Shown here in pieces: positions 2-28,997 of a stretch of 28,997 nucleotides of DNA; within the stretch, counting starts at the first letter, position 1; each line of letters opens with the position of its first letter. The notes beneath the pieces were generated by a model that was not told where the DNA came from, did not search any database, and saw nothing but the letters and a program-made list of their open reading frames with translations. The stretch comes from a virus. The translations under genes and the position numbers were made by a program. The stretch spans positions 1 to 28,997 of the IMG/VR virus record IMGVR_UViG_3300010151_000101. One strand, given 5' to 3'.

Positions 2-550
2 TCTACGATTACAACTACTACGTACAACACGAGTACTAGTACGGTTGTTAGTACTGCCATATCTACAACAACAGTTTACAATACGGCTAGAAGTACTAAC
101 ACTACTTATAATACGAGTAAAAGCACTACAACTACGTATAATACAAGTACTAGTACAACCACGACTTATAATACTAGTACTAATACCACAACGACATATA
201 ATACAAGTACGTCAACAGTTGTAAGTACCGCTATATCTACGACAACAACATGGTCTACTACTAAAAGTACAACAACAACTTATAATACAACTAAATCAAC
301 GACAACTACCTTTAATACGTCAACTGATACAACCACGATATACAATACAGCAACAACAACTACGTGGAGTACTAGTAAAACAACGGCTACTGTAGTATCA
401 ACACATAAATTGACTTCAACGGTATATTCAACAGGTAATAATACTACAACCACATATAATACCAGTACTACAACAACATACACTACTACTAAAAACTTTT
501 ATAATACTTATAGAACAGATTGGTCTACAGGACGATATGACTATAACTAG
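2..550 (+). CDS. C-terminal part of a Thr/Ser-rich decapeptide-repeat protein (probable fibre/adhesin), 5'-truncated
   Basis: The frame is open from base 2 to a TAG at 548-550, giving 182 residues with no start in the window. Well over half of the residues are Thr or Ser, with regularly placed aromatic residues. The repeat unit is close to TTTTYNTSTS, and every unit carries Y/W/F/V followed by N/S/T and Thr. The repeats stop near residue 162. The last 20 residues are richer in aromatics and basic residues (NFYNTYRTDW, then RYDYN) and could be a capping or binding tip. I do not recognise a named family. Thr-rich short-period repeats usually form beta-solenoid or fibrous folds, and a surface fibre or adhesin on the virion is the likeliest role, by inference. 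It lies upstream of the glycosyltransferase-like and packaging genes on the same strand. Cys and Met are absent in the visible part. Confidence 0.7.
   Translation, partial: STITTTTYNTSTSTVVSTAISTTTVYNTARSTNTTYNTSKSTTTTYNTSTSTTTTYNTSTNTTTTYNTSTSTVVSTAISTTTTWSTTKSTTTTYNTTKSTTTTFNTSTDTTTIYNTATTTTWSTSKTTATVVSTHKLTSTVYSTGNNTTTTYNTSTTTTYTTTKNFYNTYRTDWSTGRYDYN
11..487 (+). repeat. Degenerate tandem 30-bp (10-codon) repeat array
   Basis: Translated in the frame starting at base 2, the array has key hydrophobic/aromatic residues at positions 8, 16, 26, 36, 46, 56, 66, 74, 84, 94, 104, 114, 122, 132, 142, 152 and 160. The spacings are therefore 8, then five of 10, 8, four of 10, 8, three of 10, 8. At DNA level the units are 30 bp or 24 bp and have diverged mainly at third codon positions (Thr as ACA, ACT, ACC or ACG). 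This indicates selection on the protein rather than recent slippage. Confidence 0.85.
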
Positions 551-562
551 GTAGAAAGTGGT

Positions 563-607
563 AAAAATGTGTAATAATATATAATAACAACAATTAAATT
601 TAATAAT
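563..607 (+). promoter_or_regulatory. A/T-rich leader shared with the one at 20222-20263 (candidate phage promoter or 5' UTR)
   Basis: This is the 57-base gap between the repeat protein and the next gene. It contains AAAAATGT, then AATAATA, then ATAACAACAA and TAAAT directly before the ATG at 608. The same blocks in the same order and at almost the same distance from the ATG (ATAACAACAA starts 24 and 26 bases upstream) occur before the gene at 20264. There is no Shine-Dalgarno. Function is inferred from the repetition and position alone. Confidence 0.3.
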
Positions 608-1516
608 ATGGAAATGTTTAACAAGAAGGAACTAGATAAAAGAATAGGTCCCCTTAAAAAAAGTAAAAATCTAGATGAACTAGAACAAGTTGAAGGCTAC
701 ACAATAAGAAAATGTAGTGAAAGAGATATAGAGCATAGTTATGATGTTTTGGCAGAAGAAATGCCTTATTTCAAAACGATGGCATATACTGAATTTGCTA
801 CTAATTTTTACATGCAACCGTTAAATGTAAAGCTTAGAAACGAAATGATGATTGATGCTTTTAACGATAATGTAAAAAATCCAGATGATTGGTCGTCTTA
901 TCTAATAGATAATGTACTAAAAAAATCTGTTAATAAATATCAAAATAGAAAAGAAAAATTTGATGACTGGCCAGCTAAAGACTATTTAGTTGTACTACCA
1001 GGATCAAACAAAGTAAAAACAAATATTTGTTTAAATAGATTAAAGTTTATATCTAAAAAACATGGTAATAATGTATATTTTAAACCACATCCAATTACAA
1101 CTCATCAAATAGTTGGTGAATTAAAAGATTTCTTTGGAGAAGAAAATATATTACCAAAAGATCTAGACATGTACTATTATATGCAGAAAGCTAAAAAAGT
1201 ATATACTACTCATTTAAGTGAGAGTGCTATTTATGCTGCTGTATTAGGCAAAAGAATAGAACCAATTGATATATGGAATAATATAAATCATGGGTCATTT
1301 GCTTGTATAAATAATCATTTATTTACAAATCAAGATAATGTAAAAAAATACATTAATAGATGTTTTTCTAGTCCTAAATCTGGCATGATAAATCCAGTTA
1401 TAGATAAGAATTGGAAAGAAAAAGTGGATAAATATATGGATTATATTTGTAAAAAACGAGAGGTTTATAAAGATTGGTTTATAGATACTAGGAAACCAAA
1501 ACAAGAAAAGAAGTAA
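608..1516 (+). CDS. Putative glycosyltransferase, GT-B capsule/sialyltransferase-like
   Basis: The protein has 302 residues. The half from about residue 125 looks like the C-terminal domain of a GT-B glycosyltransferase. A beta strand ends in LPGSNK, followed by KPHP at 159-162 and by HLSESAIYAAVLGK at 202-215. A KPHP-type motif followed by a Ser-Glu-x-Ala segment and a Gly-Lys turn is typical of capsule-synthesis, polysialyltransferase-like and CDP-glycerol transferase families, in which these residues bind the nucleotide-sugar. The N-terminal part is not recognisable to me. No signal peptide or membrane segment is visible, so it should be cytosolic. The start at 608 follows an A/T-rich leader; an alternative ATG lies at 614. 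Possible roles are decoration of a virion protein (the Thr/Ser-rich product next door is an obvious candidate) or alteration of host surface sugars. The fold call is moderate and the substrate unknown. Confidence 0.5.
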   Translation: MEMFNKKELDKRIGPLKKSKNLDELEQVEGYTIRKCSERDIEHSYDVLAEEMPYFKTMAYTEFATNFYMQPLNVKLRNEMMIDAFNDNVKNPDDWSSYLIDNVLKKSVNKYQNRKEKFDDWPAKDYLVVLPGSNKVKTNICLNRLKFISKKHGNNVYFKPHPITTHQIVGELKDFFGEENILPKDLDMYYYMQKAKKVYTTHLSESAIYAAVLGKRIEPIDIWNNINHGSFACINNHLFTNQDNVKKYINRCFSSPKSGMINPVIDKNWKEKVDKYMDYICKKREVYKDWFIDTRKPKQEKK

Positions 1517-1846: not shown

Positions 1847-2042
1847 TATCGGTAAAGATTATAAGAACGAAGCTATGCACTATGCCGTTGGCCAAGAGGT
1901 CTACGGCGGGCATACAATCACCAATATTATTGAAGAGGATAAAAAGTTTAGCATTTATATCGAAAAGAATGATGAAGAAATTCCTTGGAAAGATTTTAAT
2001 AAAAATATGGCTATAGCAGTTGAATATAATTTAGAGTATTAA
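1824..2042 (+). CDS. Small conserved-type phage protein, unknown function
   Basis: The protein has 72 residues. The ATG at 1824 lies inside the preceding gene and the TAA overlaps the next ATG by one base, which supports a co-translated cassette. The protein looks globular and mixed alpha/beta, with VGQEVYGGHTITNIIEEDKKFSIYIE as two likely beta hairpins and a C-terminal acidic or aromatic end. No catalytic motif, signal peptide or membrane helix is visible. The stretch coding for residues 17-35 is richer in G+C than its surroundings. I do not recognise the family. Confidence 0.6.
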   Translation: MKLIRKISIGKDYKNEAMHYAVGQEVYGGHTITNIIEEDKKFSIYIEKNDEEIPWKDFNKNMAIAVEYNLEY

Positions 2043-2638
2043 TGCGAAGTATAGTTTATTTTATTGTAAAACCTAAAAGTTCTCGATATAATAATACTAA
2101 AGATGTTGACGGTAAGGAATTAATATTAAATTCTGAAATATATACACATCAAAGCGTTAGTAGAGAAGCTATAGTCACTGCTGTTCCGACAATAATAGAT
2201 ACAGAAGTTAAAAAAGGTGATGAAGTTATTGTTCATCATAACATATTTAGAAGATATAATGATGTTAGGGGTATCGAAAAAAATAGTGCAAGTTATATAG
2301 GTGAAAATAAATATTTTGTTAATAGTGAACAAATATACGCTTATAAAAGAGATAATAAATGGAAAGCACTAAAAGGTTATTGTTTTGTAAAACCAATTAA
2401 ATCTAATAACGATTTATCAATAAATAAAGAAAAACCACTTGTTGGTGTTGTAAAATTTTTAAGTCCAGAATTAATAGATTTAGGTTTTAGAAAAAATGAT
2501 TTAGTAGGTTTTTCACCAAATAGTGAATATGAATTTACTATTGATAACGAAAGACTATATAGAGTAACAACCAATTCAATCACAATTAAATATGAGTATC
2601 AAGGAAAAGAAGAGGAATATAATCCAAGCTGGGTATAA
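2042..2638 (+). CDS. Tandem GroES-like co-chaperonin protein
   Basis: The protein has 198 residues in two halves, each resembling a GroES fold. In half 1 (about 5-103) a VKPKSSR strand is followed by a long loop, then KKGDEVIVHHN at 57-67 and KYFVNSEQIYAYK at 90-102. In half 2 (about 112-186) a YCFVKPIK strand is followed by a shorter loop, GVVKFL, KNDLVGF at 151-157 and RLYRVTTNSITIKYE at 171-185. Each copies the GroES order: first strand, mobile loop, basic-Gly/Asn-Asp-x-V strand, then the final 'ylv..sdI.ai' strand. Phage co-chaperonins such as T4 gp31 help GroEL fold the capsid protein, and the location in the head cluster fits that job. Function is inferred from the pattern. The GroEL-binding hydrophobic tripeptide is not obvious in either loop. 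Confidence 0.55.
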   Translation: MRSIVYFIVKPKSSRYNNTKDVDGKELILNSEIYTHQSVSREAIVTAVPTIIDTEVKKGDEVIVHHNIFRRYNDVRGIEKNSASYIGENKYFVNSEQIYAYKRDNKWKALKGYCFVKPIKSNNDLSINKEKPLVGVVKFLSPELIDLGFRKNDLVGFSPNSEYEFTIDNERLYRVTTNSITIKYEYQGKEEEYNPSWV

Positions 2639-16000: not shown

Positions 16001-17721
16001 TTTATGACCGATTTGAATCAAGTTATCACCCTGAATTTTATAGTGTTATCCAGGATGGATTACAATCAACTGGATCTGTTTTTAGAATGGCCCAAGATAC
16101 AGCTTTAATTGAATATAAAATTATAGGTTGGACTAGATCATATTATACATGTTGGACCCATTCATCAAGCGGTTGTAAAGAAGGACGAGGTAAGTATGCA
16201 ACACAAAGGATTATAAGATGGACGTTGTTATTAGATAAGCCATTAGAAGAGACTACAATTGATGCTATGGCTATACTTGGTAATAGTATGGTATTTATAG
16301 AACAATTAGGTGACGATGATGATCAGGGCGATTTTACATCTAACAATCCAGCTATATGGGAAACAGAACCAAAAGAAAATATTGAATTAGATATATATCA
16401 TGAAGCTAGTAATGCTTATGATATAACGAACCCCGGTACAGCCACAGCAGCTCATACTCCCGATCAAAGATTAGATTGGTATAATTGTTTTAGTTTTGGA
16501 AACGGTGTTGAATCAGATAGAATTCGTGATGATTATAACGCGGTACAAATGGATGATGGGCCTAGAGTATCCGCGGTGTTTGCAGAACAATATAAAGAAG
16601 AGATTAGAACTAATGATATAATATATTCTGGAATTTTTAATTCAAGATCAGGTACTAATAGAACAAACCAATTTATTCAAGCAGAATCTATAACAAAAAG
16701 TTTAAATCCTTTATATGGAGGTATTCAAAAGTTACATGCTAGAAATACAGATTTAATTGCTTTATGTGAAGATAAAGTATTAAACATACCTTGTAATAAG
16801 GATATATTATTTAATGCTGATGGTAATCCAAATGTTACTAAATCTAGTAAAGTTTTAGGAACTGCACAACCTTACGCTGGAGAATATGGAATAAGTAAAG
16901 ATCCAGCATCTTTTGCTTCATATGGTTATATGGCATACTTTACAGATAAAAGTAGAGGAACTGTTATAAGAATGGAAAGAAATGGATTAATACCAATAGC
17001 AGAATATGGTATGACAGATTACTTTAAAGATAAAATGAGGAATTGTGTTGATATTGTTGGTAGTTATGACGATAATAGAGACTTATATAATTTAACTTTA
17101 AAAACCGATGAAACAAGTGGTGGTTGCACTAGTAATACATCTAACAATGTTACCATATCATTTAGTGAAAAAACAAAAGGTTGGACGAGTTTTAAATCTT
17201 TTATTCAAGAAGATGGTGTTAGTTTAAATAATAAATACTACACCTTTAAAGAAGGTGATATGTGGTTACATCATAATAACCAAACAAGAAATAAATTCTA
17301 TGATGATCAATATCAATCAGAATTTATACTATTATTAAACGATGCACCTAGTACAATTAAAAGTTTTAATACATTAAACTACGAAGGCAGTCAAGGTAAC
17401 GTGATAGTGGACAATTCTGGTACTAACGTCTTAAATCCAGATGGGATTAATCAAGATGTATATTATAATAATACAACTAAAGTCGGTTGGTATTGTGATT
17501 ATATAAAAACAGATCAAACATTAGGTGGTCAAGAAGGCAAAGTTCCTGAGTTTTTAGATAAAGAAAATAAATGGTTTAATTATATTCAAGGAATTGAAAC
17601 TACAAAAGATAATTTAGATCAAAATGAATTTTCAGTTCAAGGTATAGGACAAATTGTAGAAGATGGAACTGGATCTTCAGGAACAAATTATGTATTAACT
17701 ATAACTCAATCTCAATTATAA
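13078..17721 (+). CDS. Giant beta-rich tail protein (crAss-like muzzle / tail stabilisation type)
   Basis: The protein has 1547 residues. The N-terminus (residues 1-55: KHHFRAGKMNKDLDERLVPNG, then YRDALNIEIATSDG and VGALQTVLGN) is the hallmark of a widespread family of very large podoviral tail proteins, equivalent to the muzzle protein of crAss-like phages and analogous in position to T7 gp12. VVDGILFWTDG...EPKKINI at 151-170 is a beta-propeller blade motif. Further blades and beta sandwiches follow, with a return to propeller-like motifs near 1230-1330 (ALCEDKVLNIPCNKDILF, GYMAYFTDKSRGTVIRM). Acidic Asp-Gly-Asn loops occur at 230-235 and 769-777. No enzyme motif is evident. It probably forms the distal tail tube and its closed exit. 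Its stop overlaps the next ATG by one base. Confidence 0.72.
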   Translation: MPEIKHHFRAGKMNKDLDERLVPNGEYRDALNIEIATSDGDDVGALQTVLGNNREDVTSYVSGVYNTIAARMGDIWTIDGKCIGHCLDTQNEKIYYFVADANFGGIFEFEQKNPEISSTKSGVIKPVLLDRTTGVTLLQFSTSNRITGINVVDGILFWTDGVSEPKKINIQKFKDYTNDDLSQTTQIDGSNFAEEHITVIRKNPTLAPVLNMLRTKHAMPITTTIDYLFTDDNGDPFESGDVLSALQFTPTPAYETGDPIKLTYTDPTDNTEYEIRASIQSSGTVFDVILDSVPFDVPSSTVVWDVELIDEDPLFETKFPRFSYRYKYDDGEYSCYAPWSEIAFLADDFDYEPKKGYNLGMVNQLRSLKITNFTKNSSGTVTVPWDVVEIDILYKTSDANNVYTVKTLKKVGVNNQPDPEWTADSLEVTSEVIHKVVSPNQLLRPWDNVPLKAKAQELTANRLMYGNYTENFNMLDYNNENISPIFEFNITNRSDQPTNTDEGYKSIKSQRTYQLGVVYRDDYGRETPVFTDQQTGALKLPKAFATGYNQITASITTNPPSWAKSYKYYVKETSAEYYNLAMDRYYPAEDGNIWLSFPSAERNKITEESFITLKKEHDNSIFVSETAKYKVIAIENEAPEFIKRSWVHKAIIRSGVAAYDKAADDDGDMNWDTFTGGPFFTFSSAPQENRNFVDIPKPLWDGGHLSSYAQELHSMPDLAMRFKTSSAKSQWYEIKGMSLINASADEESNFWRIEIKKKFEGDVAFVTTDSDGNGTKDTVTGGVDVIIAQREIKNKPEFAGRFFTKIYRDSVLNDYIMMEQVEEEPFEKYLIDLPNDTNTATPIVNTYGGNKAAGLVRFWLQYSWQPEDKRAGWFIDRSKYVCNSDNSWRNQSCRDKHFYVANSQQNEEGNSYLNSLNTPGASNEFDRGMNKQGYSTWEEARDETGKGMVEGSRFMDISFHNWGVRDGKKSRWTRVYDRFESSYHPEFYSVIQDGLQSTGSVFRMAQDTALIEYKIIGWTRSYYTCWTHSSSGCKEGRGKYATQRIIRWTLLLDKPLEETTIDAMAILGNSMVFIEQLGDDDDQGDFTSNNPAIWETEPKENIELDIYHEASNAYDITNPGTATAAHTPDQRLDWYNCFSFGNGVESDRIRDDYNAVQMDDGPRVSAVFAEQYKEEIRTNDIIYSGIFNSRSGTNRTNQFIQAESITKSLNPLYGGIQKLHARNTDLIALCEDKVLNIPCNKDILFNADGNPNVTKSSKVLGTAQPYAGEYGISKDPASFASYGYMAYFTDKSRGTVIRMERNGLIPIAEYGMTDYFKDKMRNCVDIVGSYDDNRDLYNLTLKTDETSGGCTSNTSNNVTISFSEKTKGWTSFKSFIQEDGVSLNNKYYTFKEGDMWLHHNNQTRNKFYDDQYQSEFILLLNDAPSTIKSFNTLNYEGSQGNVIVDNSGTNVLNPDGINQDVYYNNTTKVGWYCDYIKTDQTLGGQEGKVPEFLDKENKWFNYIQGIETTKDNLDQNEFSVQGIGQIVEDGTGSSGTNYVLTITQSQL

Positions 17722-19856
17722 TGGCAGGTTTATTAAATTGTACAGTATCACAAAACGGAACAGCAACAATAGCAGGTGGATCACCTGTAGGTGTCAAGGT
17801 TCTGCGAATGATTATATCACCAAACTCTGGATATGTTATAGATTATTCAAAATTTACCGTTGGTAATGGTTTTCCTACATCACCTGGAACTTTTACTAGA
17901 GGTTTTAATGATGTTTCTTTTGATCAATCTGGTACAGACAATGATGAAGCAATTAATAAAGTTGTACTTTCAAATTCTGGAGTAGCAGCTACAGTTGGAA
18001 ATACTGTTTTAGTAGATATATATTTAAATGAAACATATGAGATGCCAGCTGCCGCAACTGGTTTAACTATTGATATAGATGGTGAAGCAATACCTATTAA
18101 TGTGCAGTCAGTGTTAACTGTTATTGAACCTAAACCACATAGTGGTGATTTTCAAACCATCACAACAGCGTTTGAAACTACAGAAAATAGTACAAATTAT
18201 GGTATAACTCAAACTAGTCAAAATGATGATACTCCATCAACTGGTTTAAGAACTACCGTATATACCATTAGTGATACAATTGATACTAATAAAATTGTAT
18301 TTACTAAAACATATGCGGCTGATGCAAATTATTATTATAGTGTAACACCTTATTGGGAAAATGTATCAAATATAGTTCAACCTCCATTTGAAATAACAGA
18401 AGCTGTAACAACTAACGCTGATGGACATGATACAAGAAATATTTTTACTGTAAAATATAAAATGCCTTCAACCACTCAAATTGGAACATTAAAGTTTTTT
18501 GCTGATGAAGATTTATTACCAAACGCACAAACTCTTGAAATACGAAATTATACTATAGCAGATACAGATATACAAATAGAAGGTGAAACAAGAAGGTTAA
18601 TTATATATGGCGTTACTGGTGCTAAAGTTAATTTATCAATAGTATCTGGTAGTGATACATATGATTTTGATGATAATACATTTACTAGTGCAGCTACAAG
18701 TTTAACTAATGCTGTAATAGGTGCACAATTTCCAACTGATGGAACAGGTTATTATGAAGTTGATATTGTATTTCCTACAAACGCCACAAGCAGTGTAGTT
18801 CCTTATGTACTTACTTTTACAGCTGGTACTTCTTCAGTCTTAGGATCTGATTTACCAACAAACCCATTAACAATAAATCAACGTGCTTTATGTACTGCTA
18901 CATTTAATATCATTGAATCTAATTCTTCATGGACACCAACGAGTCTTGGTACTGCTTTAACACAAGTAGCTGGTGGAGGTAAATCCAATAATAGAGTTCC
19001 TGGAACATTCACAAACGCGTTCACTGTAACAGATGATGCAACGTTTTATTTAAGAAGACAACCATTAGCTACTGATATAACTAATGTAACTGCTAATAAT
19101 ATGTTATTCCAACTTCCCAAAGTGACTACAGATAAACCTACTAATCACGGTGCTGGTAGTGCTGGTATGACAAGTTTAGTAATAACACAATCTGATGCAC
19201 GTATAGATTTACACCCAACAGTGGATACCACATGTTCTATAGATCTTGGTGCTTTAGTTAATTCGCCTCCAACATCAAATGCTTTAGCTATTAATGTGGA
19301 TTATGAAACTGCTAGAACATTTAGTTTATCAGCATCAGATCCAGAAGGTGATACATTAACGTATTCAACAGTTGGTTCACCTAGTAGCGGTTCGTTAAGC
19401 GCTTTGAATACTGCTACTGGTGCTATAACTTATACACCTAATGGTAGTTTTTCTGGTAGTGATACATTTACATACAAAGTGAATGACACATATGAAGATA
19501 GTAACACAGCAACAGTTACATTGACGGTTGCTGGTAGTGGTGGTAGTGCTGTAGCTAGATATGCATTAGAAATATATAACTCAAGTGGTTATTTAACTGG
19601 GACACACTATATAGATGGTACTCAAGTATGTGAGAGTGGTAGTTTAACAGGTAGTGTTTGTTTAGGATTTGGAAGTTTAACTAATAAATGGTTTAGATAT
19701 GTTACTGTTGCAGCTGGTTGTGGTAGTACTGTATACGGTAGAGGTAAACTAACAGGAGCTGTATCAGATGGAGTACCAACAGCTTATGTAAATGAAAATA
19801 CCTATTTCAACAACAGTGATGATTCATATAACAACGCTAATGGAACAAGCTGTTAA
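17721..19856 (+). CDS. Tail-associated protein with an Ig-like (cadherin/Big-type) domain
   Basis: The protein has 711 residues, mostly beta, with Thr/Ser/Asn-rich linkers. Residues 1-500 appear to be several beta-sandwich modules without a name I can give. Residues 514-605 are a clear Ig-like domain: NSPPTSNALAINVD, SASDPEGDTLTYS, GAITYTPNGSFSGSDTFTYKVND, ATVTLTV. This is the Big/cadherin-like module used for adhesion in bacterial and phage surface proteins. After a Gly/Ser hinge (GSGGS) the last 100 residues form a separate unit with four Cys (637, 647, 667, 711), a likely receptor-contacting tip. It is translationally coupled to the muzzle-like protein (1-base overlap), which supports a place on the tail. 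There is no signal peptide. Confidence 0.68.
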   Translation: MAGLLNCTVSQNGTATIAGGSPVGVKVLRMIISPNSGYVIDYSKFTVGNGFPTSPGTFTRGFNDVSFDQSGTDNDEAINKVVLSNSGVAATVGNTVLVDIYLNETYEMPAAATGLTIDIDGEAIPINVQSVLTVIEPKPHSGDFQTITTAFETTENSTNYGITQTSQNDDTPSTGLRTTVYTISDTIDTNKIVFTKTYAADANYYYSVTPYWENVSNIVQPPFEITEAVTTNADGHDTRNIFTVKYKMPSTTQIGTLKFFADEDLLPNAQTLEIRNYTIADTDIQIEGETRRLIIYGVTGAKVNLSIVSGSDTYDFDDNTFTSAATSLTNAVIGAQFPTDGTGYYEVDIVFPTNATSSVVPYVLTFTAGTSSVLGSDLPTNPLTINQRALCTATFNIIESNSSWTPTSLGTALTQVAGGGKSNNRVPGTFTNAFTVTDDATFYLRRQPLATDITNVTANNMLFQLPKVTTDKPTNHGAGSAGMTSLVITQSDARIDLHPTVDTTCSIDLGALVNSPPTSNALAINVDYETARTFSLSASDPEGDTLTYSTVGSPSSGSLSALNTATGAITYTPNGSFSGSDTFTYKVNDTYEDSNTATVTLTVAGSGGSAVARYALEIYNSSGYLTGTHYIDGTQVCESGSLTGSVCLGFGSLTNKWFRYVTVAAGCGSTVYGRGKLTGAVSDGVPTAYVNENTYFNNSDDSYNNANGTSC

Positions 19857-22446: not shown

Positions 22447-25400
22447 ATGCCAAACGGAAACGATGAAAATCAAAGATTATTGGATTATTGGAATTCAATA
22501 GGTACACAACCTATTGAAAATAATAATGTTATACCTGAACCAGAAAAAAAAGAATTTGATTTTTGGGGAGATCATGATACCGTTATTGGTTTAGGTCCCA
22601 GTGTATCCCTTGGTACACCTGCAATAGAAAAAATAGCAAAAAAGGAAAAGGAGAAAGAAAATAAAAGAGTTAATGATGCTTTACATATAAAACAAAAAAA
22701 AGTTGCTGATCCTGTTATATCAGATTGGTTAAATAATCCAGATAATATTACAGCATCTACTAACATTGTAGATGAACCCAATTGGAATCATATATATATG
22801 GGATATGATGATCCAGATAAAGGGGATGCTAAATCAAGAAAAGATATAGCTAAAGAAATCAAAAAAATATTTGGCGTAGAAAATTGGTATGGAGGTTGGG
22901 AAGCTAAAGAGGGTTTTGATAAACTTACCGAAACTGATCTTGATAAACTTATTAAAGATGGTATAAAAAATAAAGCCCATAAAGAACAAGCGGTTAAAGT
23001 TGAAGAAGCAAAATTAGAATATGTTGAGTTAATAAAAGAAAAAGCAATTAACGATTCTAGATATAATAATTTATCTTCTATTGAAACATTATACCGATTA
23101 AAAGACTATCAATCTCTCGATCCTGATGAGAAAAAAGTAGCAGATCTTATTGTAGAATTAAAAGAAATAAGAGATAATCAAAATCCTTCCGAAAATCAAA
23201 ATCAAATAATTTCACAAAAACAATCAGAAATACAAGCAGCTATTGATAAATTAAGCTGGAGACAAGATGGTGATCAATATATTGATTACTCTACTGGATC
23301 TACATTCGAAAAAATGTCTGAATCCGAAAAATCAACTAACTTCACATACACACAAGAAGAATTAGCAGCATACAAGAAAGCTATAGAAGATGGTACAATT
23401 ACAGCTACAACTCAAGAAGATCATATTAATAATTCATACAATCAAGAACTACTTAATTTAAATTATAGTGATTTAAAAGGTGAGGAAATATTAGACGTTA
23501 CTATTAACGATCATCAAGCTTGGAGATTATTACAACGCTTGGGGCATAAACCGACTGGTCGTAATAAAAATGGATTTGAATTTCAAATTCCCTTAAGTGT
23601 ATTAGGAGAAAATTATTACGATATAATAGAAGGAACAAGTAATCCATCTAATCTTGGTGGTTATAATATAGAAACATTAACAAGTGAAGATAAAGAATTT
23701 TTCGGAATAAAAGATTATACTGAATTAAGTTTTGATAGTGCTTGGGGTCATACTGGACTAACTAGTGAATCTAAAAACCAAAACAATACTACATGGGAAA
23801 AAGCTTGGAGTGGTGAAGCAGAATTTGCAGACAAAGATTATTCAAGAGCATTTAAATTAATGGTAAGAGATTATAGAGATGATAGAAGAGCTATATTAGG
23901 TAGAAAAGAAGTTTTAAAAGATATGGCTTTACTTAATATAAATCCAACAACTAAAATACAAGGTGGTTTGGAGAAAACAGGAGATTTCTTTATAAGAGGT
24001 GGAGAACAAATTGTTACAGGTTTTATGGGTGATGCTGAACAGTGGTTAGGTGTTGAAGATACTAAAGATGTTAACTGGAGTAATAGAAGAGAAAAAGATA
24101 TACTACAAAGTGTTGAAGATGTATATGGTAAAGTACTAACTGATGATATGAAAGAAGAAGTTAGACGTAGTTTTGGATATGGTGTATGGGAAAGTTTTAC
24201 AGGATTTGTACCAGCTTTAACTGAATTTATGTTAATAGATGCTGCGGCTAAAAAAGTAGGTGTAATTACAGGTTTACCTAAATTAGCAAAATCTTTATAT
24301 AAAGTCTCAAGAGGAGCTGGAGTTGGTGTCAGAGGATCACGAGCAATTGCTCACACAACAAACCATTTGTTACATGCTATGTATGAAGAAGCTAAAATGA
24401 GAATTGCTTTTGATGAATACTATCATCTAGGTGGTGGTACTGCCTTTTATGGAATGGGCAAGATACTACCATTTGTAAAATTTGGATCACCTATGTGGAA
24501 AAATTTTGCAAATAATTATGTAAGAGGGGGTACGGCTGGTATGTTATCTGTTCAAGCCGCTTCAAATCTAGAGGCTGCTGTAGATGATTTACGTGGAAAT
24601 GAAACTTGGCAAACACATCTTAATCAAGAATATTTTAATGAAGAAGGTGGATTTGCATTTAAGAAAGTATCACAACAGATGCTTACAGATTTCTTTGTGT
24701 TTGGTGGTTTAGGTATTAGAGGTATGATAAAAGAAGGTCAAAAAGTAGGTAAACCTTTCTCACTTGGTATGATACCAGTTAGAGGTAAAAAACTTCCTAA
24801 TTCTAGTTTATTACCAGCTCAATGGAGAGGTAAGGTATGGTGGAAAGGTTATGAAGATATTAAAAATGAATCACAGGAACTTTACAATAAAGCACTAAAT
24901 CAAGTTGAATATTATAAAGGACTTAATGAAGATCCAAATTCATTAGGTGGTTTTGCAAAAGAATTAAAAGCGGCAGAAGCACAAGCTAAAAAATGGGGAG
25001 AACTATGGTCACAATCTGAAATAATGCTTCAAAAAGCTTGGAAAGAAGATATGTGGCAAGATAATAAAAAAGCAACTGAATTATTAAATGAACAGTGGAG
25101 TGGTGTTAAAAATCTTGTTAAATCTCAAACTGGTAAAGACATGGAGTTTGTTGCTTCTAAAGAACCACCAGATTGGGTTACTGATCAAACGGCAACAGCC
25201 GAAGTTAATAAAACAACGGGTCAAGTTTGGGTTAATACTAAACTAGCAGAACCTGGAAAAATACCACATGAGATACTTGGACACATAGCAACATTAGGTT
25301 TTGGTACTAAACAAAAAAGACAATTAAGAACCGCTTTAGAAAAAGCGTTTGGTAATAAAAAATTATATATACAAGGTAAAGAAAGAAGTTTAACTGAAAC

Positions 25401-28400
25401 AATTGGTGAAGAATATTTACTTTCTCCAGAAAAACGTAAATCAATTATTAATGATGATAAGCTATCTACTAAAGAAAAAGCTAAAAAAATAAAGGAAGAA
25501 GAAGAAAAACTACAAGATGAAGAATATATAGCTTTTACATTTGAAGCTTTAGCAAATCCTAGAAATTATAGTAAATTTGTTAGTTCTGATAAATACACTG
25601 ACTATGGTTCTTTTATGCAAAAGTTTATTCAAAGCACTGGTATAAGAAATTATGAAATAAAAACTAAAGAAGATTTAGTTAATTTTATGTATGCTATGGC
25701 ATCAGGTGTTAAAAACCAAAAGTTGTCTAAACAGATGTGGGATACTTTTCAAAATATCCATAAAGAAAATTGGTTAAAAGAACCTATAGAAACTGATATG
25801 AGAACCAAAGAATCTAAAGCTGAAGAGTTTTTAGAATTATCTCCAGCTTCAAAAGATCTTAATATTAAACAATCTAGTGATCTTCAAAAAAAATATGAAA
25901 CTTTACTTAAAGAAAGGGGTATAGATGAAACAATAAAAGAATTAATAGGTAAACCAGATCCTAATACACCAGAAACATCTGTATCTAAAGAGTTTGATAA
26001 AATACTATATAACGCTATAAATGAATATAATAGACATATGATTCGTAAAGGCGCTGAAAATAGACAAGTACTTGATCCCACAGAAAGATACATGTTAGCA
26101 AATGAATTGTTGACTGATATGACGAAACAAGGTGAAGCTGAAGAAGCTGGTAGAGATAGGAAAGAAAGAGGTTTACGAGGTATAATAAAAGAATATTATA
26201 ATTATAAACCAAAAAAAGGTGAAGTAAAACAACCGCTCTCTCAAACAATAATGGAACATCTTAAAGTACGTATTTTTAAAATAAAACAAGGTACGGAAAT
26301 GGACCAACAAATAAAAACTGTTAGTTTGTCAGATCCTGATATAATGAGAATGGTTGAAAACAAAACTGGTGAATCAATGTATGATTTTGAAATTGGGAGA
26401 CCTAAAGATATAAAATCTGAAGAATTAATATCAGTAAGCGACAAAGCAAAAGCACCATCAAGAATAACTAAAGAAAATGTTATAGACTATATTACAAGTA
26501 TTAAAAAAGGAAATATAGTTGAAAATTTAAGTTTTATGAAATTACATGAAGCTTTTGAAAATCAAACTAAACAAAGTTTGTATGATGCTATAGGTATAAC
26601 TCCTGATATGAAACCAGCTGAGTACATCCCAAAAGCGATGGATTGGTTTGATAATGTTTTAGGGGAAAAGAATGCTCATATATTATTACCAGAAACATCT
26701 AGTCCTACTTTTTACCAACCAACTAATGTAAATAAAAGTGGTTTCAAAAAGGTATACACAAAAACAAATGAAAAATATACATCTTTAGATATACCTGATT
26801 GGGTTAGAGTAAAATCAAATACACAAAACTTTAAATATGAGAAAAATGATTATGTTAAAGGTTTAAATAGAAGTATTATATTTGATAAAAGAGATAATGT
26901 AGCAAAAAAAGAAGCTTTTGAAATATTTTTAGACAACCTAACTAAAACAAAAACATCTCAAGATTTTAGAACTAATTTAAACAGCCCAGATGTTCAAGCT
27001 GCAATAAAATCAAGAGCACCAGAAAAATGGGTTAAATTAACATACGAAGACATATGGAATAAATACTTACATGATGTTGTTAGAGGTGCTACTCCAGAAG
27101 GAGCTCAATCAAAAGATTTAAATAGAAAAAATAAAGAAGAAATTAAAGTATGGAAAGAATTTGAATCTAAAATAGCTACTCATAGTTGGAGTAATTATGA
27201 TGATATAGGTAAAGCTTGGGAAGATCTTAAACTCAAGATGTCTATTAAAGAACAAGCTATATTAGATAAACATTGGGATGTTTTATTAGGAAGTCAAGGA
27301 TATAAAGTTAGTAAAAATACTAAACAAGAAATGATTAATAGAGCTAAGGTGTTAAGAAAGCTTGGTATGTTAGAAGATAAAAAACCTATAGTACCTGAAA
27401 TATTCTTGGGAAAATATAAAGATATTAATAAAAGAATTGAAGATATATTTATTAAAAAAGGTTTAATAAAAGAGGACGAACTTGTAAAAAAATCAGGTTT
27501 TCCAAGATTAAATATAAACGAAACCATACAAGATAGATTAAATGATAAAGATTTTGTAAAAAAATACAAAGAGGCAGTACAAGAAATTTATAAAACACTA
27601 GATCCAAGAGTTGCAAAATGGTTTGTATATAGTATAGGTGGTAGTCAGTGGAAATTTTTAGGAAGTGATAAAGCAATGAGTGCTACTGAAAGAGACGCTA
27701 TATTTAAAGATTTAAAAGGAGCTAAAGGAAGATTAAGTTTTAATCCTAATCATGTTAGATTGGTTGATAATGGAACATTTAAAAACGGAAATAAATCTAA
27801 TCTTGGTTATATAAAAGAATTAGCAAAAGCTGACATATCTACCCCTGCTAAAAGAAGAGCTTTTATTAATATGATAAAGAAAAAATACTTAACAGCTAAA
27901 AATACTACATACGAGAATACAGTTAAAGCTAATAGAGGTTTACAAAGATATATATATGGTAAACTGTTTGATTATTATAAAGGTCAAAAAGATAAGGTAA
28001 ATGCTATAAATAATATACAGTTTTTATTACAATTACAATCTGACATCAGTCAAGGATTCGCTAGAGGAACAGCAACTCACACAGCGTTAACAGTTCACAA
28101 AACAGATGTAATGCACAGTGAACACGAACTTCAACTTGTTAATTTTAATGGTAATACATTAATAAACATGATTTCAAATGCTGGTTCTAAAACGAGATTT
28201 TATAAAAACTTTGATCCTTTATCAAGTGTATATGAACAAAGTATAATTCCTAAAAGATTACAGCAGTTAATAGATTCCCCTGGGCAAGGTGGAAAAGTAG
28301 ATAATTTCTATAGAGAAGGTTACAACACTGATGTAACAGCTAAAGTTGAATATATGAGATTTCAATTAATAGCTGAAACCACAGTTGATTTAAAAACTGG

Positions 28401-28997
28401 TAAGACATATAAAGAGCTTATTGAAGAAGCTAATAATATAAAACAAGGTGTCGATGTTATAAATAAAATAAAGAAGAATCTTCAAAAGAAATTAGATAAC
28501 GCTGTTGGTAGTAGTAAACAATCTAAAGTTTTAAGTTCGCCAGAAATAGCTAAGAAATTACAAGAAATAGACGAAGCACTACGTTTAGCTAAAGATCCTA
28601 ATACACCAAGGAAAGGATTAAGTGTATTTGATTTTGATCAAACACTAGCTAATACAAAAGAACAAGTGTTAGCTAAAATGCCTGATGGTACATTAAAAAG
28701 ATTATCTGCGGCACAATTTGCTAGACAAGCAGAAGCATTAGAAGCTAAAGGAGCTAAGTTTGACTTTTCACAATTTGAAAAGGTAGTAGGTGGTACCAAA
28801 GGACCACTAGCTAATCTTGCATTAAAAAGACAAGGTAAATTTGGAAGTGAAGATATATTTATATTAACCGCTAGACCACAGGAAGCGGCAAATGCTATAC
28901 ACAAGTTTTTAAAAGGTATCGGTTTAGAAATCCCTATAAAAAATATTAAAGGTTTAGAAGACGGTACCCCACAAGCAAAAGCGTTGTATATATTAGA
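22447..28997 (+). CDS. Giant multidomain (polyvalent) protein with zincin metallopeptidase and HAD domains, 3'-truncated by the window
   Basis: The frame runs from the ATG at 22447 to the window edge, 2183 codons without a stop. Residues 1-340 are hydrophilic and helical. Residues 500-770 contain Gly-rich apolar segments (GFVPALTEFMLIDAAAKKVG near 586-605, GGTAFYGMGKILPFVKFG near 663, DFFVFGGLGIRGM near 749) suited to membrane contact. Residues 905-1045 look like a zincin metallopeptidase: strand TGQVWVNT, then IPHEILGH with H941, E942 and H946, and EEYIAFTFE (1025-1033) as the possible third ligand. A long helical and mixed stretch follows. From 2058 a HAD domain has FDFDQT (D2062, D2064, T2066), ILTARP (T2141) and K2178. 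Phage polyvalent proteins combine such enzymes and are packaged and injected. The position after two core-like proteins matches T7 gp16. No lytic transglycosylase or RNA polymerase motif was found. Confidence 0.8.
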   Translation, partial: MPNGNDENQRLLDYWNSIGTQPIENNNVIPEPEKKEFDFWGDHDTVIGLGPSVSLGTPAIEKIAKKEKEKENKRVNDALHIKQKKVADPVISDWLNNPDNITASTNIVDEPNWNHIYMGYDDPDKGDAKSRKDIAKEIKKIFGVENWYGGWEAKEGFDKLTETDLDKLIKDGIKNKAHKEQAVKVEEAKLEYVELIKEKAINDSRYNNLSSIETLYRLKDYQSLDPDEKKVADLIVELKEIRDNQNPSENQNQIISQKQSEIQAAIDKLSWRQDGDQYIDYSTGSTFEKMSESEKSTNFTYTQEELAAYKKAIEDGTITATTQEDHINNSYNQELLNLNYSDLKGEEILDVTINDHQAWRLLQRLGHKPTGRNKNGFEFQIPLSVLGENYYDIIEGTSNPSNLGGYNIETLTSEDKEFFGIKDYTELSFDSAWGHTGLTSESKNQNNTTWEKAWSGEAEFADKDYSRAFKLMVRDYRDDRRAILGRKEVLKDMALLNINPTTKIQGGLEKTGDFFIRGGEQIVTGFMGDAEQWLGVEDTKDVNWSNRREKDILQSVEDVYGKVLTDDMKEEVRRSFGYGVWESFTGFVPALTEFMLIDAAAKKVGVITGLPKLAKSLYKVSRGAGVGVRGSRAIAHTTNHLLHAMYEEAKMRIAFDEYYHLGGGTAFYGMGKILPFVKFGSPMWKNFANNYVRGGTAGMLSVQAASNLEAAVDDLRGNETWQTHLNQEYFNEEGGFAFKKVSQQMLTDFFVFGGLGIRGMIKEGQKVGKPFSLGMIPVRGKKLPNSSLLPAQWRGKVWWKGYEDIKNESQELYNKALNQVEYYKGLNEDPNSLGGFAKELKAAEAQAKKWGELWSQSEIMLQKAWKEDMWQDNKKATELLNEQWSGVKNLVKSQTGKDMEFVASKEPPDWVTDQTATAEVNKTTGQVWVNTKLAEPGKIPHEILGHIATLGFGTKQKRQLRTALEKAFGNKKLYIQGKERSLTETIGEEYLLSPEKRKSIINDDKLSTKEKAKKIKEEEEKLQDEEYIAFTFEALANPRNYSKFVSSDKYTDYGSFMQKFIQSTGIRNYEIKTKEDLVNFMYAMASGVKNQKLSKQMWDTFQNIHKENWLKEPIETDMRTKESKAEEFLELSPASKDLNIKQSSDLQKKYETLLKERGIDETIKELIGKPDPNTPETSVSKEFDKILYNAINEYNRHMIRKGAENRQVLDPTERYMLANELLTDMTKQGEAEEAGRDRKERGLRGIIKEYYNYKPKKGEVKQPLSQTIMEHLKVRIFKIKQGTEMDQQIKTVSLSDPDIMRMVENKTGESMYDFEIGRPKDIKSEELISVSDKAKAPSRITKENVIDYITSIKKGNIVENLSFMKLHEAFENQTKQSLYDAIGITPDMKPAEYIPKAMDWFDNVLGEKNAHILLPETSSPTFYQPTNVNKSGFKKVYTKTNEKYTSLDIPDWVRVKSNTQNFKYEKNDYVKGLNRSIIFDKRDNVAKKEAFEIFLDNLTKTKTSQDFRTNLNSPDVQAAIKSRAPEKWVKLTYEDIWNKYLHDVVRGATPEGAQSKDLNRKNKEEIKVWKEFESKIATHSWSNYDDIGKAWEDLKLKMSIKEQAILDKHWDVLLGSQGYKVSKNTKQEMINRAKVLRKLGMLEDKKPIVPEIFLGKYKDINKRIEDIFIKKGLIKEDELVKKSGFPRLNINETIQDRLNDKDFVKKYKEAVQEIYKTLDPRVAKWFVYSIGGSQWKFLGSDKAMSATERDAIFKDLKGAKGRLSFNPNHVRLVDNGTFKNGNKSNLGYIKELAKADISTPAKRRAFINMIKKKYLTAKNTTYENTVKANRGLQRYIYGKLFDYYKGQKDKVNAINNIQFLLQLQSDISQGFARGTATHTALTVHKTDVMHSEHELQLVNFNGNTLINMISNAGSKTRFYKNFDPLSSVYEQSIIPKRLQQLIDSPGQGGKVDNFYREGYNTDVTAKVEYMRFQLIAETTVDLKTGKTYKELIEEANNIKQGVDVINKIKKNLQKKLDNAVGSSKQSKVLSSPEIAKKLQEIDEALRLAKDPNTPRKGLSVFDFDQTLANTKEQVLAKMPDGTLKRLSAAQFARQAEALEAKGAKFDFSQFEKVVGGTKGPLANLALKRQGKFGSEDIFILTARPQEAANAIHKFLKGIGLEIPIKNIKGLEDGTPQAKALYIL

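What the first reader, a model, noticed from the sequence alone, without database searches (positions are those of the whole stretch)
25141..25600. Zincin metallopeptidase domain inside the giant protein
IPHEILGH with H941, E942 and H946 has the H-E-x-x-G-H form described for phage polyvalent proteins, preceded by a beta strand and followed by an acidic helix containing E1025, E1026 and E1033. Packaged metallopeptidases could process virion proteins during ejection or cut host targets at the start of infection, including defence proteins.
Basis: partly seen in the sequence, partly recalled or inferred. Interest (0 to 1): 0.65.

Follow-up and report, generated by a model that had tools for sequence, protein, structure and literature searches.

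The report
Zincin domain in giant phage protein
A giant protein, probably packaged and injected by a virus of Bacteroidota bacteria, carries a real zinc-peptidase-type domain that almost all its relatives share, but near relatives have repeatedly swapped a key zinc-binding histidine for glutamine, so whether this copy still cuts proteins is open.

Summary
The giant ORF (22447 to the window end, >=2183 aa) has PHEILGH (H941, E942, H946; DNA 25267-25284), a strand before it, and a helix with E1025, E1026 and E1033. The window is a 29-kb fragment of a podovirus whose terminase is nearest to Flavobacterium, Cellulophaga and Maribacter phages. A survey not selected for the motif found HExxH in 37 of 38 giant proteins at this locus in related viral contigs; the 38th is cut off just before it. 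A family profile built without the window scores the window domain at 23.7 bits (best of 2000 shuffles: 10.0). Two AlphaFold models (mean pLDDT 66 and 69) have the zincin order of strands and helices; most of the best structural matches are zincin-type folds, at modest Z. The HEXXXH form is known from polyvalent proteins (Iyer 2017) and from active M49 peptidases. Unexpected: the nearest homologous clade mostly has QExGH (12 of 15 rows; at least three H/Q changes), while the catalytic Glu and Glu helix stay invariant. Fold and family are well supported; activity here is plausible, not shown; anti-defence targeting has no direct support. Most likely: a zincin of an injected giant protein that processes it or a virion partner.

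The parts
22447..28995 (+). Giant virion-type (probable ejection) protein, >=2183 aa, runs off the window end; colinear relatives L089 and L091 are about 3000 aa
23863..24732 (+). Conserved N-terminal region (res 473-762) shared with L089/L091/L099-L104 giants at 25-29% identity; holds the most hydrophobic stretch (583-601)
25027..25710 (+). Zincin-fold domain, about res 861-1088: N-terminal helices, three strands, HEILGH helix, insert, Glu helix
   Evidence: AlphaFold; profile; BLAST; structural matches
25222..25236 (+). Strand preceding the motif (QVWVN, res 926-930)
25267..25284 (+). HEILGH motif: H941, E942, H946 (HExxxH; one residue longer than HExGH/QExGH of homologues)
25519..25545 (+). 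Glu-helix motif EEYIAFTFE (E1025, E1026, E1033), invariant in homologues as EEYxMxxxE; source of the expected third zinc ligand
28549..28995 (+). HAD-type phosphatase-like domain (FDFDQTLAN, ILTARP), incomplete at the window end; about 50-56% identical to other giants

Best explanation
Residues about 861-1088 form a zincin-fold domain that is an old, near-constant part of the giant protein these Bacteroidota podoviruses probably package and eject with their DNA. In this copy H941, H946 and a helix glutamate (E1026 or E1033) probably hold zinc, with E942 as general base; the extra residue in HEILGH is taken up by a bend in the helix, as in M49 peptidases. Most likely it cleaves the giant protein itself, or an internal virion partner, during or after ejection, separating the N-terminal region from C-terminal enzyme domains such as the HAD phosphatase. 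Shown: sequence, homology, positional conservation. Supported by prediction: fold, strand/helix placement. Inferred: packaging, zinc, catalysis, substrate.
For: HExxH at res 564-1313 in 37 of 38 related giants chosen without regard to the motif, the 38th truncated before it, against 5.9% expected by shuffling; also in cultured Elemovirus, Gundel_1 and the ctfjg026 genome. Profile without the window: 23.7 bits vs best shuffle 10.0. BLAST HSP 473-1104 to L100 passes through the motif. Two AlphaFold models agree on topology; best VIA-align rows are mostly zincin-type folds (LF-type, PPEP, selecase, minigluzincins, IrrE, MATCAP; Z 3-6.6), and BFVD matches are giant phage proteins, several named polyvalent. 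E942, E1025, E1026 and E1033 are invariant. M49 enzymes with hexa- and pentapeptide motifs keep nearly the same zinc site and both are active (PMC5805324). Auto-processing by such domains is proposed in PMC5512222.
Against: 12 of 15 homologous rows have Gln at the first His, with at least three H/Q changes, so catalysis is not needed in much of this clade. N4 vRNAP, which carries an HExxH domain, is packaged unprocessed (PMC5512222). AlphaFold confidence is moderate; no Foldseek match reaches E 0.001; Z below 8 is not diagnostic alone. No Pfam, PHROG or NCBIfam model hits the domain. The positional homologues of phi18:3, phi38:1 and Panino lack the motif.
Confidence: 0.5

Rival explanations
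1. The domain keeps the zincin fold but no longer works as a peptidase; it is a structural or binding module of the giant protein (packing, folding, docking), and HEILGH in the window is one stage of active-site drift.
For: Repeated His-to-Gln at the first zinc ligand in the nearest clade while architecture is kept; the window's motif has an odd spacing relative to those relatives; in N4 vRNAP the region with the HExxH domain is required for encapsidation (PMC5512222).
Against: The catalytic Glu, second His and Glu helix stay invariant even in Gln rows, unlike free decay; the window keeps all predicted ligands; HExxH is kept in the whole wider lineage.
Confidence: 0.3
2. It is an injected effector that cuts a host protein early in infection, for example a defence or regulatory protein.
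For: Polyvalent proteins carry zincins for which host targets were proposed (PMC5512222); best structural matches include secreted zincin effectors and IrrE/PprI-type regulators.
Against: No target and no defence link in the window; the domain is nearly universal at this locus across diverse phages, which fits a constant virion-linked task better than host-specific targeting; Gln replacements.
Confidence: 0.15
3. Chance motif in a coiled, unrelated region.
For: The motif alone arises in 5.9% of shuffles.
Against: Homology, register, positional conservation and fold.
Confidence: 0.04

Closest known systems
Zincin-like MPTase domains of polyvalent proteins, HEXXXH type (Iyer et al. 2017, PMC5512222)
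   Same: Domain inside a giant multi-domain phage protein; HEXXXH motif; three strands, N-terminal helix, motif helix and Glu helix.
   Different: Here the HEXXXH copy sits in a clade with HEXXH and QExGH, so the extra residue looks like a local insertion; whether it belongs to their HEXXXH clade was not testable (their alignments are not held).
C1 domain of N4 virion RNA polymerase (PMC12633501; MPTase in PMC5512222)
   Same: HExxH domain in a ~3500-residue protein ejected by a podovirus.
   Different: No RNA polymerase domain was recognised in this giant; HExxxH instead of HExxH; no sequence match found.
M49 dipeptidyl peptidase III (HEXXGH; PMC5805324)
   Same: Same HEXXGH hexapeptide; a family in which penta- and hexapeptide forms both work.
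   Different: No M49 second motif or overall similarity detected; analogy for the motif only.
LF/PPEP-type and minigluzincin folds (PDB)
   Same: Best structural rows of the model.
   Different: Z at most 6.6, 8-16% identity; fold-level resemblance only.

Membership tests
Zincin superfamily | Two His and a catalytic Glu in a helix motif | tested here: met
   H941, E942, H946 at the start of predicted helix 941-951, with non-standard i,i+5 spacing
Zincin superfamily | Downstream helix with a third-ligand Glu | tested here: met
   EEYIAFTFE in helix 1008-1036, invariant in homologues; which Glu is the ligand is not resolved
Zincin superfamily | Core fold: N-terminal helix, three-stranded sheet, two helices | tested here: met
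   Order of elements in both models and zincin-type structural rows; moderate pLDDT
Zincin superfamily | Bound zinc and hydrolase activity | not testable with these tools
   needs protein
Polyvalent-protein MPTase, HEXXXH clade | HEXXXH motif in a giant multi-domain mobile-element protein | tested here: met
Polyvalent-protein MPTase, HEXXXH clade | Grouping with the published HEXXXH clade | not testable with these tools
   published alignments not held
Pfam/PHROG/NCBIfam metallopeptidase families | Match to a curated model | tested here: not met
M49 dipeptidyl peptidase III | Overall M49 domains and second motif | tested here: inconclusive
   no Pfam match to the window protein; only the HEXXGH form is shared
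N4-like virion RNA polymerase | RNA polymerase domain in the same chain | tested here: inconclusive
   no RNAP model in 2183 aa by Pfam, PHROGs or NCBIfam, but the protein runs off the window

The most novel reading that the evidence does not exclude
Giant virion proteins of Bacteroidota podoviruses carry an ancestral zincin whose first zinc ligand is repeatedly replaced by Gln (QExGH) while the base and Glu helix stay fixed: either a Gln-liganded metal site or a conserved pseudo-peptidase with a new job, with the window's HExxxH as a third configuration of the same site.
Probability: 0.3. Interest if true: 0.6.

Novelty: new variant of a known kind. Interest (0 to 1): 0.42.

Why it matters
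Zincin domains are the commonest domain in polyvalent proteins (PMC5512222), yet the papers read here name no proven substrate for one in an ejected giant protein. This locus offers a natural comparison: near relatives with HExGH, HExxxH and QExGH in the same protein, plus cultured phages with the intact motif (Elemovirus on Flavobacterium sp. BAL314, Gundel_1), so the question whether such domains work as proteases or as structural parts becomes testable.

Tried and rejected
Direct tblastn of the giant (E up to 0.01) and of the domain (E up to 10) against 50,697 phage records: no match. Single-sequence scans of viral contigs with the window protein: none. Sequence searches of solved structures: nothing meaningful. 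Foldseek against PDB: no match at E 0.001 or better; top rows by E-value were not zincin peptidases. An early small-profile test did not separate the window from shuffles; the larger profile did. DNA pattern for PHEILGHI in viral contigs: two hits, both PHEIFGH in short ORFs, unrelated. Scan of bacterial genomes with the family alignment: no relative. Third-ligand candidates E984/E988/E989: one three-row alignment favoured them; larger alignments and BLAST put E1025/E1026/E1033 in register. Gapless versus gapped alignment of HEILGH to HExGH is not settled (gapped and in BLAST, gapless).

Full report
What is there. The window is a 28,997-base viral contig. Its terminase is 64% identical to that of an uncultured podovirus genome (ctfjg026), 45% to Elemovirus (Flavobacterium) and 32-41% to Cellulophaga, Maribacter and Tenacibaculum phages. 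Gene order is terminase, portal, putative scaffold, capsid, tail genes, a 280-aa and a 444-aa protein, and then the giant ORF, which runs off the end at 28995. Colinear relatives suggest a full length near 3000 aa.

The observation. The motif is PHEILGH, spacing HExxxH. By chance a shuffled version of this protein shows HE..H or HE...H in 5.9% of trials, so the motif needs support from elsewhere.

Support 1, position. Eighty viral loci were fetched by the tail protein, not by the giant. In each locus the longest ORF of at least 900 aa beyond the tail gene was scored. Of 39 such ORFs, one (L014) is a shorter neighbouring gene directly after the tail gene and one (L077) ends just before the place of the motif; the other 37 all have HExxH, at residues 564-1313. 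A few are near-duplicates. The giants of Elemovirus (HEIFH), ctfjg026 (HEFGH twice) and Gundel_1 (HEFGH) have it too; those of phi18:3, phi38:1 and Panino do not.

Support 2, homology. The giants L089, L091, L099-L104 and L110-L124 share the window's architecture: region 473-762 (25-29% identity), zincin, and in several the C-terminal HAD domain (48-56%). A BLAST alignment of window 473-1104 to L100 (E 5e-10) runs through the motif, with HEILGH against QEI-GH and DEEYIAFTFEALANP against PEEYVMNVVEFLSQP. A profile of the family without the window gives the window domain 23.7 bits; the best of 2000 shuffles gives 10.0. An earlier, smaller profile had not separated it from shuffles.

Support 3, fold. 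Two AlphaFold runs with different alignments gave the same order of elements, mean pLDDT 65.7 and 69.3. VIA-align's best rows are mostly zincin-type folds: LF-type domains, PPEP, selecase and other minigluzincins, IrrE/PprI, MATCAP, with Z 3-6.6. Matches among predicted viral proteins are giant phage proteins, several annotated as polyvalent, and one is the Gundel_1 structural protein, which has its own HEFGH. No Foldseek hit reached E 0.001, Z values under 8 are not diagnostic alone, and model coordinates could not be measured, so the zinc-site geometry is untested.

The twist. In the nearest clade the first His is mostly Gln: 12 of 15 homologous rows read QE[VIAFM]GH; L089, L124 and the distant L105 read HE[VI]GH. 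On a maximum-likelihood tree at least three H/Q changes are forced by well-supported branches; the window and L105 are long branches, so their place is unsure. With HExxH in the wider lineage, His is the likely ancestral state. In the six-row alignment A8 the Glu of the motif, the second His and the Glu-helix residues are invariant, so the site is not simply decaying. The window keeps both His but with an added residue.

Can HEXXXH work? Iyer and colleagues describe HEXXXH MPTases in polyvalent proteins with a probable bend in the helix (PMC5512222). In M49 peptidases the HEXXGH hexapeptide is the norm and a natural pentapeptide member has an almost unchanged zinc site (PMC5805324). So the spacing is compatible with activity but does not prove it.

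Mechanism. Packaging is inferred: the positional homologue in phi18:3 was found by MS/MS according to its record, and those of Elemovirus and Gundel_1 are annotated as structural. Processing of the giant, or of an internal partner, around ejection is the most economical role, since the domain sits between a conserved N-terminal region and C-terminal enzyme domains and is nearly constant across diverse phages. The Gln lineages and the unprocessed packaging of N4 vRNAP keep a structural role as the main rival. Host-defence targeting is possible but unsupported.

Verdict. Zincin fold and family: about 0.9 likely. Zinc-dependent peptidase in this copy: about 0.55. New variant of a known kind.

Noticed in passing
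window 28549-28995; L091, L099, L038, L063, L089: C-terminal HAD-type phosphatase-like domain in the giants. In L089 a P-loop kinase (AAA_33 E 4e-14; Zeta toxin and polynucleotide-kinase models) lies inside the HAD domain, a kinase-phosphatase arrangement reminiscent of Pnkp RNA-repair enzymes; a packaged RNA-repair enzyme would be a possible counter to tRNA-cutting defences.
   Followed up: partly
window 2042-2638: GroES/Cpn10-like protein (Pfam Cpn10 E 5e-4, just under cutoff) upstream of terminase; related phages have an annotated co-chaperonin GroES at the same place.
   Followed up: partly
window 2-550: Highly repetitive Ser/Thr/Asn/Tyr-rich ORF (STSTTTTYNT repeats), open at the window start; no Pfam match.
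   Followed up: no
window 17721-19856: 711-aa protein with a bacterial Ig (Big_9, E 3e-15) / cadherin-like domain, probably a tail or adhesion part.
   Followed up: no
Gundel_1 giant (L108:109-7557): Weak GNAT acetyltransferase match (E 0.002, below cutoff) upstream of the HEFGH zincin in the same chain.
   Followed up: no
P0003 (ctfjg026 giant, L002:741-12320): Two separate HEFGH motifs (res 1615 and 2500) in one 3859-aa protein.
   Followed up: no
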